This document shows positions 1 to 60,313 of a stretch of 60,313 nucleotides of DNA, piece after piece. A model generated the notes under the pieces. That model saw only the letters and a program-made list of their open reading frames with translations, was not told the DNA's origin and ran no database searches. This DNA comes from a virus. The stretch covers positions 1 through 60,313 of IMG/VR virus record IMGVR_UViG_3300028571_001115. The stretch is one strand, 5' to 3'. The translations under genes and the position numbers were made by a program. The first letter of the stretch is position 1; every line of letters starts with the position of its first letter.

Positions 1-44
1 CGGCATGGAGAGCGACAGTCTCTGGTCCATTTAGGCCCACCCAG

Positions 45-746
45 TTAAGCTGCAAAAGCGGCGTCGATCTGCGCCTTCGTTGTGACAGTACCGCCTGCGA
101 TGCCAGCACTTACGGTCGCCTCCAAGTTAAACGCGTTTGAGATGTGTGACCGAGCCAAGCCGATCACCGTCAGCATTTGAGCGTTGGTCAACATTACGAA
201 CTCGCCGCGCATCTTCCATCTAGACGGGTCTGTGCGAAGGCCAGCACCGATCGCCACCATCTCAGCGATCAGCTTAGATTGACTGTCGCGGTCCGTATTG
301 ATGATCTGATCATCAAAGCTCGCGCACCCGCCCGTTTCGAGCTGCCAGCGCTTTTCGGCGGCGTATTCGATCAATATTTGAGCTGGTATTGCCAAAATTC
401 CAACCGCCCCGGCATCCCAGTCCACGGCCCACCGCTTGGGTGGCACGTCAGGGAGGGTTGTTGGTGGTGAGGTCAGATAACGCGCACCTGATGGCACGAC
501 GCCTGCAATGAGCCGTGCAATGCACTCCGCTTCCGTCTCGGCTGGAGTATCGATGACCGTCTCGACGCCGGTCTGCATTTCCTGCTGGTTCGTCGTCGGA
601 TTGCCGTCCGCGTCCGGATCTCCGGGCACGTCAACCATCCCCATGACGGGCAAATCGTGTGTCACGGCTGGGCGTGGCTCAACGGCAATTCCCGCCGTCC
701 GCACCTGACCGTTGTCGTCGTAAATGATTAGCATGCTGAGGCTCAC
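45..746 (-). CDS. Tail fibre assembly-like protein, DUF4376 domain
   Basis: About the last 110 of 233 residues match the DUF4376 pattern that I recall from phage tail-fibre assembly proteins: a Lys-Arg-Trp near residue 132, an acidic DRDSQSKL stretch, and FVMLTNAQML followed by a helix. The first 120 residues are proline-rich and variable. It lies directly downstream of the tail fibre, and the GTG start overlaps the fibre stop (GTGA); an ATG four codons in is an alternative start. The role, folding or attaching the fibre, is inferred from the family and position. It is the last gene of the minus-strand late operon. Confidence 0.7.
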   Translation of the reverse strand: MSLSMLIIYDDNGQVRTAGIAVEPRPAVTHDLPVMGMVDVPGDPDADGNPTTNQQEMQTGVETVIDTPAETEAECIARLIAGVVPSGARYLTSPPTTLPDVPPKRWAVDWDAGAVGILAIPAQILIEYAAEKRWQLETGGCASFDDQIINTDRDSQSKLIAEMVAIGAGLRTDPSRWKMRGEFVMLTNAQMLTVIGLARSHISNAFNLEATVSAGIAGGTVTTKAQIDAAFAA

Positions 747-3918: not shown

Positions 3919-4697
3919 TAGTGCCTCCTCGGACGTGACCAGCCAAACGCCCTGAAGCCGACCTGCACCGGCCCGTGGTTCTCGTCCTGGAAACGGCTGC
4001 GCAGCGTCCGCATGAATTTAGCCTCCAGCGGCCCAGCAGCAGGCTGGTTCCACTTCGCGGCAAGCTGGGCCGCTAAGCCCTGGCAGTACGTCTCCCACCA
4101 GTTGCGGCGAGCATCGATTGCGTCTCCCATGCCGACCGGCATGGCGATGTCGCGAAGGCGCGTAACCTGTACCGATACGCCCGATAGACCATTCTGCGGC
4201 CACAGCACCAACACCTTCTTGCCAGCCAGTGAGGTGACGTTGCCGCCAGCCGCCTGCGAGAACGCGGCTGCTCCCCAGCCAGAGACGAGGGTGGGCTCGA
4301 ACAGCGTTAGCTCGCCGGGCAGCGACTTCGACACCCAGAATAGGCTGGGGCTGCCGAGGTGGGTCGGTCTGGCAAGTGTGAAGTAATCCTCCCGCGTGGT
4401 GCGGGCCAGCGGCAGCGGCAGGCTGTTCGGGAACAGGAGCTGGCAAGCCATGACGTCGATCGTGTCGTCAGGCAATGTCACCGCGCCGCGCCCGGTCGGC
4501 AACGGGATCACAACGGTGTCTTCGCGGTACTCAGCAGTCGCCCGGCCTCCGCCTTCGTTTTCGATGATCGTGTTCAGCAGCAGGAGCGATCTGCGGGCCG
4601 AGTTGAGGTGGCGATGGCTGATCGATGCCGGGTCGAGACCGGCGCGTTCAAACGCCTCGTCCAACAGGTCACCAAAGTCAAAACCATCCATCGCCAC
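3918..4697 (-). CDS. Neck / tail accessory factor-like protein
   Basis: A 259-aa protein. It starts with a helix (DFGDLLDEAFERAGLDP) and RRSLLLLNTIIENEG, then a beta region with VTLPDDTIDVM, and a helical end with WWETYCQGLAAQLAAKW. This order resembles P22 gp4-type tail accessory or stopper proteins, in keeping with a short-tailed virion. It follows the capsid gene, and a repressor-type operator lies 10 bp upstream of its start. Function is inferred. Confidence 0.5.
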   Translation of the reverse strand: MAMDGFDFGDLLDEAFERAGLDPASISHRHLNSARRSLLLLNTIIENEGGGRATAEYREDTVVIPLPTGRGAVTLPDDTIDVMACQLLFPNSLPLPLARTTREDYFTLARPTHLGSPSLFWVSKSLPGELTLFEPTLVSGWGAAAFSQAAGGNVTSLAGKKVLVLWPQNGLSGVSVQVTRLRDIAMPVGMGDAIDARRNWWETYCQGLAAQLAAKWNQPAAGPLEAKFMRTLRSRFQDENHGPVQVGFRAFGWSRPRRH

Positions 4698-58323: not shown

Positions 58324-58582
58324 AATACGCGAGGCGATAGAGCAGGAATTGATAAGCTGGCCCCAGGTGTCGGCTCAATTTGGGATGGGCGGGAAACACC
58401 CATTTGTCCAAATCATCTATGACGGCAAAAAGAGGCGCATCACCTATGCAGGGTCGCCAAGTGAAAATCAACGATCCGCGCGAAACGTCGTCAAGTGCGT
58501 CAGGCACGCCTGTCGAGACCTGATGGTAGGAGCCAAACTGAGGAGGATGCCCGGTGACCAACGCCCTCACGCAGGTCGATGA
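58313..58582 (+). CDS. Conserved small phage protein
   Basis: An 89-aa protein with ISWPQVSAQFGMGGKHPFVQ, YDGKKRRITYAGSPSE and NQRSARNVVKCVRHACRD. I recall this pattern near excisionase/integrase genes in alphaproteobacterial prophages, without a known role. It overlaps both neighbours. Confidence 0.5.
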   Translation: MCREIREAIEQELISWPQVSAQFGMGGKHPFVQIIYDGKKRRITYAGSPSENQRSARNVVKCVRHACRDLMVGAKLRRMPGDQRPHAGR

Positions 58583-58931
58583 GACCGTCAGTGCCCTGGT
58601 CTGGCGCGAGGGCACACGACCGCGTAGTCTGCGCTGGCTCCGTGAGGACATGGCGCGCCGTGGCTTTGCCAGAAAGGTCGGCGGACGCTACGTCACGACA
58701 CTGGAGATGGTCGAGCGATACAAGGATGATTTAATCGGATGCGTGAAAAATTTGCAATCAGAGCCACCCTTAAACCTGCCAGTCGCATCAAAAACGGCGT
58801 CACGTATTGGAGCGCCAGAGGCAACGTCCCCGTCAAAAAAGAGGACGGCACGATTGCCCATCAGCGAGTCGACATTGGCCTTGGAAAAGCTGCAAACGCT
58901 GCGGAAAGAAAAGCGGAGTGTGCGCGCCTAA
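58554..58931 (+). CDS. Excisionase-like HTH protein
   Basis: A 125-aa protein from a GTG with GAGGAGG upstream. Residues 12-60 look like a small winged HTH (LVWREGTRPRSLRWLREDMA, VGGRYVTTLEMVERYKDDLI), as in excisionases or MerR-type adaptors. The tail is Ser/Pro-rich and overlaps the integrase start by 193 bp. Position directly before the integrase supports a directionality role. Confidence 0.5.
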   Translation: MTNALTQVDETVSALVWREGTRPRSLRWLREDMARRGFARKVGGRYVTTLEMVERYKDDLIGCVKNLQSEPPLNLPVASKTASRIGAPEATSPSKKRTARLPISESTLALEKLQTLRKEKRSVRA

Positions 58932-60244
58932 ATAGTGAGTACGAGGAGCGGGCGAAGGCGAGTGGCAAAAGAATGACTTTCGCCAGGGCGTGCATGAATT
59001 ATTGGGATGCTGGGCACGAGCCGTGCTTTATGTCAGATCGAATAATCGCAGCCATCGGCGACATGAATTGCGCCGATATTGACGACACGGTCATGTTGCG
59101 GGTGGCCCAGAAACTATTCCGCAGAGAAGCGTCCCCTGGCTATGTCAACCGGCACCTTTATACGCCGGTCAACGCTGTCCTGAAGATGGCCTCTAAGTCG
59201 AAGGTCTGCCCACCACCAGATCTCACGCGCCCAAAGGGCCACAAGTCGTCGCCCCAGAAGGCGATCCCAGATGACGCTTGGTACTCCAAGGTCGAACCAT
59301 TCCTAACGCCGCACCTGCGCGCCCTGGTGGCTTTCATGACCCTGCACGGTCGCCGTCTTGGGGATGCGCTCAACGCCGCCCGGGGGGACTACCTTCGAGA
59401 CCAGGGCGTGCTGATGATCGGCAAGGACAAGATGGGCAACGCCCTGCAGATCCGCCTCACCGTACACGTCATCAAGTGCATTGAGGCGATGCCGGATTTT
59501 GGCCAGCACAAGCACCTGTTTCGGTATGGTCCAGTAGCTCCGTCGAACGTCCGCCGGGACCTGCAGAGGGCGTGCCTTAAGGCTGGCGTACCTTATTTCT
59601 CCCCGCACTCCTTGGGCCGCCACGCCTTCGCGACCCGCATGCTGCGCGCCGGGTTCTCGCTCCAGTTCGTGAAGGACGCGGGTGGGTGGAAAACGATCGA
59701 AATGGTGTCGAACCGGTACGGCCACCTTGCCCACAGCGAGGTCAGCGCCGCCGTCGAGTCTGTGTCGGTCGATTTTGCCAACGGCAACGAGAGCGCCATC
59801 GCGGCAGCCTACAAGCTGGCGGACGAAGCCTTGTCTGTACCCACACTGCCGAAGGTCGACCTTGATCATCCGCTTGCTCGCCAGGAGGCGCTGATGCGCC
59901 TGCGCGGCACGAGCCCTGCCTGGGTCTATTTCTTCTACTGCTCGGGCGCGATCAAGATCGGCGTCTCGACTGACGTCCAAAAGAGGCTGAAGAACATCAA
60001 TGGAGGCAACAGCAACACCATCTACCTCGTCGGTCTGCTGCCGGGGTCGTTCCAGCTTGAAGGCGAACTGAAAGCTCGGTTTGACAAGTTCGCTACCAGT
60101 GGAGAGTGGTTCAGGGCTGAACCAGAGCTGCTTCGCTTCATCGACGTGAATGCTGACGGAAAACCCCTGATCGACGGTGGAAAATTGGTGGAAAAAGATT
60201 TTCGCCTCGCCCTGCCAAAGTTGGATGATGGTTTACCTCAATAA
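58739..60244 (+). CDS. int: Tyrosine integrase fused to a T5orf172 (GIY-YIG-like) domain
   Basis: A 501-aa protein. Residues 80-160 are the core-binding domain. Residues 175-335 are the catalytic domain: LHGRRLGDALN (Arg205/206), KDKMGN, HSLGRHAF (His290, Arg294), GGW (315-317) and Tyr327 in NRYGHL. Residues about 392-470 match T5orf172: WVYFFYCSGAIKIGVSTDVQ, RLKNINGGN and SGEWFRAEPE, with Arg416 and Glu456 as expected nuclease-type residues. Phage integrases normally end after the catalytic Tyr. The last gene before the likely att site. Confidence 0.85.
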   Translation: MREKFAIRATLKPASRIKNGVTYWSARGNVPVKKEDGTIAHQRVDIGLGKAANAAERKAECARLNSEYEERAKASGKRMTFARACMNYWDAGHEPCFMSDRIIAAIGDMNCADIDDTVMLRVAQKLFRREASPGYVNRHLYTPVNAVLKMASKSKVCPPPDLTRPKGHKSSPQKAIPDDAWYSKVEPFLTPHLRALVAFMTLHGRRLGDALNAARGDYLRDQGVLMIGKDKMGNALQIRLTVHVIKCIEAMPDFGQHKHLFRYGPVAPSNVRRDLQRACLKAGVPYFSPHSLGRHAFATRMLRAGFSLQFVKDAGGWKTIEMVSNRYGHLAHSEVSAAVESVSVDFANGNESAIAAAYKLADEALSVPTLPKVDLDHPLARQEALMRLRGTSPAWVYFFYCSGAIKIGVSTDVQKRLKNINGGNSNTIYLVGLLPGSFQLEGELKARFDKFATSGEWFRAEPELLRFIDVNADGKPLIDGGKLVEKDFRLALPKLDDGLPQ

Positions 60245-60285
60245 ACACGGTGGTCTTGGAAGGTGGAAAATCAAGGGTCAATTTT

Positions 60286-60313
60286 AGACCTCTACCCTCC
60301 GAAGGCAAAGGTC
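60286..60313 (+). other. Candidate att core resembling a tRNA-Arg(CCG) anticodon arm
   Basis: 42 bp after the integrase stop, the bases CTCCGAA-GGCAA-AGGTC fit a 7-nt anticodon loop (CCG), the 3' anticodon stem and a 5-nt variable loop. The preceding CTACC pairs only partly with GGCAA, as expected where phage sequence joins a tRNA-derived core. The window ends before the T arm, so this cannot be confirmed here. Confidence 0.4.

What the first reader, a model, noticed from the sequence alone, without database searches (positions are those of the whole stretch)
58739..60244. Integrase fused to a GIY-YIG-like T5orf172 domain
A catalytically complete tyrosine recombinase continues past its Tyr into a T5orf172 domain that keeps the usual KIGVS, Arg and GEWF features. 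Such a nuclease-type module on an integrase is not a standard architecture. It could nick att DNA, prevent competing integration, or act as a DNA-binding tail.
Basis: partly seen in the sequence, partly recalled or inferred. Interest (0 to 1): 0.7.

Follow-up and report, generated by a model that had tools for sequence, protein, structure and literature searches.

The report
Phage integrase joined to nuclease-like gene
In this virus the enzyme that inserts the virus into a bacterial tRNA gene runs on, in one reading frame, into a small DNA-cutting-type domain that relatives carry as a separate neighbouring gene and that here still has its own strong start signal, so the cell probably makes both a joined and a free form.

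Summary
ORF 58739-60244 (501 aa) is a complete tyrosine integrase (PF00589, E 7e-17) followed in frame by a MUG113/T5orf172 domain (E 1e-7 and 4e-5). The frame carries coding signal through the linker, and the tail is predicted to fold as a GIY-YIG domain.

None of 80 integrase relatives from viral contigs is fused. Six viral contigs carry the same domain as a separate gene within 600 bases behind a tyrosine integrase. The two closest integrases (46-47% identity) have no such gene there; they end against a tRNA-Arg(CCG) attachment core that is also the last 19 bases of this window. Here the T5orf172 module lies between integrase and attachment core and keeps an in-frame ATG (59894) behind AGGAGG, the best Shine-Dalgarno site of 27 in-frame starts.

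Best reading: a mobile GIY-YIG nuclease-type gene settled behind the integrase and became joined to it. A fused protein and a free 116-aa protein are both expected. Cleavage and any effect on integration are inferred, not shown. The expected catalytic Glu is E441, not E456. The fusion was seen once; the recurrent integrase-T5orf172 neighbourhood is the more interesting pattern.

The parts
58554..58931 (+). small ORF (125 aa) overlapping the start of the integrase gene; similarly placed small ORFs precede the integrase in L030, L031, L003 and L005; possibly an excisionase (guess)
   Evidence: ORF lists; no Pfam match
58739..59773 (+). tyrosine integrase part, residues 1-345 (N-terminal DNA-binding and catalytic domains; R206, K231, H290, R294, W317, Y327)
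   Evidence: PF00589 E 6.6e-17; phrog_1 E 2e-30; alignments; model pLDDT about 90 over most of this part
59774..59893 (+). linker, residues 346-385, coding in frame, low model confidence
   Evidence: codon log-odds; pLDDT mostly below 65
59883..59888 (+). AGGAGG Shine-Dalgarno sequence 5 nt before the internal ATG
59894..60244 (+). T5orf172/MUG113 gene with its own in-frame ATG (M386); predicted free product of 116 aa
   Evidence: SD -10.0 kcal/mol, best of 27 in-frame starts
59924..60154 (+). GIY-YIG-type domain: Y397, KIG 406-408, R416, E441, GEWF 455-458
   Evidence: PF13455/PF10544; alignment A4; AlphaFold2 core pLDDT about 94; top ten VIA-align matches are all GIY-YIG proteins
60295..60313 (+). 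prophage attachment core, CCCTCCGAAGGCAAAGGTC, part of a tRNA-Arg(CCG) gene; the record ends inside it
   Evidence: same core directly behind the integrase in L030 and L031, followed there by the rest of the tRNA; whole tRNA-Arg(ccg) genes with this sequence in L136, L139, L144, L147

Best explanation
This is an ordinary temperate-phage integrase of a kind that inserts into a tRNA-Arg(CCG) gene, whose frame has become joined to a neighbouring T5orf172/MUG113 gene lying between the integrase and the attachment core. The T5orf172 module is a gene-sized, GIY-YIG-fold, nuclease-type unit of a kind that moves between phages independently of the integrase and sits behind integrases in several phages, as homing-type nucleases sit beside conserved phage genes. 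Because a ribosome-binding site and ATG survive at the domain boundary inside the joined frame, two products are expected: a 501-aa integrase with a flexibly linked GIY-YIG tail, and a free 116-aa GIY-YIG protein. The most likely role of the free protein is DNA cleavage that favours the spread or protection of its own locus; the tail is probably tolerated by the integrase. Shown here by computation: the continuous coding frame, the domain identities and predicted fold, the internal start signal, the separate-gene state in relatives, the attachment core, and the transfer of such a gene between two related phages. Inferred: two translation products, nuclease activity, homing-like benefit, tolerance by the integrase.
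For: Continuous coding signal across the junction. Internal AGGAGG + ATG at the domain boundary, SD -10.0 kcal/mol against -3.8 for the first ATG; only 2 of 237 interior ATGs in 27 ORFs of this phage are as strong. Separate T5orf172 genes behind the integrase on the same strand in L003, L005, L094, L103, L004 and L131, also L007. Closest integrase relatives L030/L031 end without T5orf172 and abut the same tRNA-Arg core as the window end. L003 and L005 share the T5orf172 gene at 92% DNA identity over 529 bp, almost exactly the gene, while their integrases are only 43.5% identical in protein. GIY-YIG fold, with invariant Tyr, Arg and Glu. T5orf172 proteins are described as phage homing-type nucleases (PMC10448857), and one, Odn, cuts DNA depending on its GIY-YIG Glu (PMC8263062).
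Against: No relative with the two genes separate AND a closely related integrase was found, so the joining event itself was not caught. The internal SD could be chance: given the peptide, 63% of synonymous recodings give an equally strong SD, so only its position at the domain boundary is informative. The window's T5orf172 has no recognised DNA-binding domain of its own, unlike typical T5orf172 homing nucleases. The tyrosine of the YIG motif is a lysine here (KIG). Structural Z-scores are modest (4.4-5.7). Transfer of the gene alone was shown for relatives, not for the window's copy.
Confidence: 0.57

Rival explanations
1. A functional single-chain integrase-nuclease: the integrase part brings the GIY-YIG tail to att sites, where it nicks or cuts (own or competing) attachment DNA, as Odn uses a copied replication-protein domain to aim a T5orf172 nuclease at a satellite's origin.
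For: The frame is coding across the linker. T5orf172 and integrase genes are neighbours in several lineages, also in Actinomycetota (3 of 30 T5orf172 loci: L184, L192, L175), which hints at a functional link. Odn precedent (PMC8263062).
Against: The fusion was found once; none of 80 integrase relatives has it. In relatives the domains are separate proteins. Cutting its own attP would be costly. The internal start suggests that the tail also acts alone.
Confidence: 0.15
2. The T5orf172 tail is a non-cutting DNA-binding or regulatory module that modulates the integrase, for example as a directionality or transcription factor.
For: Some separate T5orf172 proteins carry MerR/HTH_17 domains (L015, L120); the one behind the integrase in L004 has an HTH-like N-terminus by eye.
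Against: GIY-YIG key residues are invariant in 16 aligned members, which suggests selection on catalysis. No HTH in the window's version.
Confidence: 0.13
3. Assembly or sequencing error, or a very recent mutation, removed the integrase stop in this one viral contig.
For: Only one example. A single substitution at many linker codons could have removed a stop. The +1 frame stops exactly at the internal ATG (TGATG, 59892-59896).
Against: Linker codon usage is strongly in frame (+18.8) and strongly against the +1 frame (-12.7), so a single indel error near the junction is unlikely. A substitution error or recent stop loss cannot be excluded.
Confidence: 0.15

Closest known systems
Phage tyrosine integrases of the PF00589 / phrog_1 type (closest: L030 and L031, IMG/VR contigs with a tRNA-Arg(CCG) attachment core)
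   Same: 46-47% identity over about residues 1-355, same catalytic residues including the H-x-x-G-R variant, same attachment core right after the gene
   Different: those end 16-44 residues past the matched integrase domain and have no T5orf172 at that place
T5orf172 / MUG113 GIY-YIG genes beside integrases (L003, L005, L094, L103, L004, L131)
   Same: same domain, same strand, behind the integrase within about 600 bases
   Different: separate genes, mostly with a longer N-terminal part; here joined in frame and with only 11 residues from M386 to Y397
T5orf172 homing-type endonucleases of ICP1-like and T5-like phages (PMC10448857)
   Same: same GIY-YIG subfamily, variable presence, gene-sized mobility
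   Different: those mostly carry CapR/DUF723-type zinc-finger DNA-binding domains and sit near structural or nucleotide genes; here no such domain is recognised, and the neighbour is an integrase
Odn (ICP1 Gp88), a RepA_N-T5orf172 chimeric nuclease (PMC8263062)
   Same: a T5orf172 domain C-terminal to a specific DNA-binding protein domain
   Different: Odn joins only a DNA-binding part to the nuclease; here the whole, seemingly active integrase is kept and an internal start remains
Hpy188I (GIY-YIG restriction enzyme)
   Same: weak alignment with a KIG motif instead of YIG plus Arg, suggesting that KIG need not abolish cleavage
   Different: not a significant sequence match (E 0.35); restriction enzyme, other context

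Membership tests
Phage tyrosine integrase (PF00589) | R-K-H-R-(H/W)-Y catalytic set in the catalytic domain | tested here: met
   R206, K231, H290, R294, W317, Y327 conserved in 20 relatives; Pfam above cut-off
Phage tyrosine integrase (PF00589) | gene next to an attachment site | tested here: met
   19-base core 51 nt downstream, shared with L030/L031 and with tRNA-Arg(ccg) genes; the other att copy is not in the record
T5orf172 / MUG113 domain (PF10544, PF13455) | score above curated cut-off | tested here: met
   24.7 bits (cut-off 20) and 32.5 bits (cut-off 22.3)
GIY-YIG nuclease superfamily | GIY-YIG fold | tested here: met
   AlphaFold2 model; ten best VIA-align matches are Slx1, UPF0213 proteins and I-TevI, Z 4.4-5.7. 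Foldseek alone was not significant
GIY-YIG nuclease superfamily | conserved Tyr, Arg and Glu of the active site | tested here: met
   Y397, R416, E441 invariant in 16 members; second Tyr is Lys (KIG)
GIY-YIG nuclease superfamily | endonuclease activity | not testable with these tools
   needs biochemistry
Homing endonuclease gene | variable presence at one locus among relatives | tested here: met
   absent behind the integrase in L030/L031, present in the window and in other lineages
Homing endonuclease gene | gene-sized transfer between genomes | tested here: inconclusive
   shown for relatives L003/L005: 92% DNA identity over the gene only, integrases 43.5%; no evidence for the window's own copy
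Homing endonuclease gene | own DNA-binding domain | tested here: inconclusive
   none recognised in the 116-aa free product; the fused integrase could supply one
Homing endonuclease gene | cuts the allele that lacks it and is copied in | not testable with these tools
   needs experiments

The most novel reading that the evidence does not exclude
T5orf172/MUG113 proteins are a recurrent accessory of the tyrosine-integrase module: att-directed GIY-YIG endonucleases that act on attachment sites (own or of competitors for the same tRNA). This phage has taken the last step of fusing nuclease and integrase into one polypeptide while also making the free nuclease.
Probability: 0.12. Interest if true: 0.72.

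Novelty: new variant of a known kind. Interest (0 to 1): 0.42.

Why it matters
If the tail cuts DNA, it would be an integrase carrying its own endonuclease, and a case of nuclease genes colonising the integration module of temperate phages. The wider pattern, T5orf172 genes beside integrases in several phage lineages and in Actinomycetota, is a testable link between GIY-YIG nucleases and prophage integration or exclusion. The retained internal start also suggests how two adjacent phage genes can merge while keeping both products.

Tried and rejected
(1) Frameshift or intergenic junction: rejected by codon log-odds, although the +1 frame stops exactly at the internal ATG (TGATG). (2) Defective integrase because of H-S-L-G-R-H: rejected, the same spacing occurs in L030-L035 and in Cr30. 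(3) Other fused copies: none in 80 integrase relatives, in the T5orf172 loci from viral contigs, or in 30 loci from 396 Actinomycetota genomes. Phage and plasmid collections gave no match covering both domains. (4) The idea that the separate T5orf172 protein of L184 carries a copied integrase arm-binding domain (resemblance by eye) found no support in Pfam, BLAST or the PDB. (5) T5orf172 tree: too weakly resolved to place the window's copy; integrase-linked copies are scattered. (6) Foldseek against the PDB was not significant; the VIA-align second look was informative. (7) Papers: no report of a T5orf172-integrase fusion found; the 2006 GIY-YIG survey does not contain the word integrase in its main text (PMC1564403). 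(8) Closest-clade search of viral contigs found only L030 and L031. (9) Genomes of the likely host group could not be searched: no handle for that group was available.

Full report
OBSERVATION. The window is a 60,313-base virus record. Gene content fits a temperate tailed phage: terminase, portal, helicase, primase/helicase and a repressor, with the integrase at the right end. ORF 58739-60244 encodes 501 aa. Pfam finds Phage_integrase at 192-332, MUG113 at 406-466 and T5orf172 at 402-463, all above the curated cut-offs.

INTEGRASE PART. R206, K231, H290, R294, W317 and Y327 are invariant or nearly so among 20 relatives. The extra residue in the HxxR box (HSLGRH) is a subfamily trait, present in the nearest relatives and in Caulobacter phage Cr30. 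A search with a six-member alignment returned 80 viral integrase loci. The two closest, L030 and L031 (47% and 46% identity), end shortly after the catalytic domain. Directly behind them lies a core sequence CCCTCCGAAGGCA[A/G]AGG followed by the 3' part of a tRNA. The same sequence lies in whole tRNA-Arg(ccg) genes in other contigs. The last 19 bases of the window are this core, so the window most likely ends in the prophage attachment site.

TAIL PART. An alignment of 16 T5orf172-like proteins shows invariant Tyr (397), Lys-Ile-Gly (406-408), Arg (416), Glu (441), Glu (456) and Phe (458). The AlphaFold2 model of residues 386-501 has core pLDDT of about 94. In the VIA-align second look, the ten best structures are all GIY-YIG proteins (Slx1, UPF0213 proteins, I-TevI; Z 4.4-5.7), with unrelated folds below. 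The expected catalytic Glu is E441, in the helix after strand 3; E456 belongs to the GEWF motif. A T5orf172 nuclease, Odn, was shown to need the equivalent Glu (PMC8263062).

JUNCTION. Codon log-odds stay positive in frame from residue 331 to the end; the linker scores +18.8 in frame and -12.7/-17.5 out of frame. So the joined frame is coding. At the domain boundary lies AGGAGG, five bases before an in-frame ATG (59894, M386). Its predicted pairing with the 16S tail (-10.0 kcal/mol) is the best of 27 in-frame start codons, against -3.8 for the first ATG, and equals the best gene starts sampled in this phage. Among 237 interior ATGs of 27 ORFs, two are as strong. The caveat: given the local peptide, 63% of synonymous recodings would reach that value, so the codons themselves are not evidence of selection. 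A start there would give a 116-aa protein with 11 residues before Y397.

RELATIVES. In L003, L005, L094 and L103 a T5orf172 gene follows the integrase directly on the same strand; L004 shows the same with an overlapping gene; L007 and L131 have it about 600 bases further behind. In L051 it precedes the integrase. In L011 integrase and T5orf172 lie at opposite ends of the prophage, as if the attachment site lay between them in the circle. None of the 80 integrase loci is fused. L003 and L005 share the T5orf172 gene at 92% DNA identity over 529 bp, while their integrases are 43.5% identical in protein: the gene moves on its own. In 396 Actinomycetota genomes, 33 carry MUG113; of 30 loci fetched, three lie beside a tyrosine integrase (L175, L184, L192), one of them with a homing-endonuclease-associated repeat (L175). 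How far this neighbourhood exceeds chance was not measured with a proper background.

INTERPRETATION. The simplest account is that a mobile GIY-YIG gene lies between integrase and attachment core and has become joined to the integrase frame, while its own start is kept. Two products are therefore expected. Published work describes T5orf172 genes as homing-type nucleases that sit next to conserved phage genes and exchange between phages (PMC10448857). That the free protein cuts DNA, and that the integrase tolerates or uses the tail, is inference. The att-directed nuclease reading remains open and is the most interesting one, but nothing here tests it.

NOVELTY. No integrase-T5orf172 fusion was found in the papers searched. 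The parts are known kinds; their in-frame combination, and their recurrent neighbourhood, are a new variant. Limits: a single virus record, no close relative with separate genes, host genomes not searchable, no experiment.

Noticed in passing
L003:6981-7017, L005:4343-4380, L094:4126-4160, L103 about 4080-4115, L011 about 440-480: The 5' ends of the separate integrase-linked T5orf172 genes share a conserved DNA block (TGACAC..CTGACAC...GTTC....GTTC) that could be a recombination or binding site; it marks the left edge of the 92%-identical block between L003 and L005.
   Followed up: partly
L111:920-1978 and L112:8008-8640 (G006): In this prophage the integrase is at one end and the T5orf172 gene at the other, both reading the same way, suggesting the order int-attP-T5orf172 in the circular phage; no end repeat longer than 10 bases was found in the outer 800 bases.
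   Followed up: partly
58554-58931: A small ORF overlaps the integrase start out of frame; similar overlapping small ORFs precede the integrase in L030, L031, L003 and L005. It has no Pfam match and may be an excisionase.
   Followed up: no
L134:620-1555 (G045, the phage of L030): The phage with the closest integrase carries a T5orf172 gene elsewhere in its genome, with a long N-terminal part that resembles a serine recombinase by eye (GRPP motif); Pfam finds only MUG113/T5orf172.
   Followed up: partly
59892-59896: TGATG: the +1 frame, open for 70 codons, stops exactly on the internal ATG. Codon usage says this frame is not coding, so it is probably chance.
   Followed up: yes
window 1-300 and 60014-60313: No second copy of the attachment core anywhere else in the window, so the record is probably an incomplete prophage.
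   Followed up: partly
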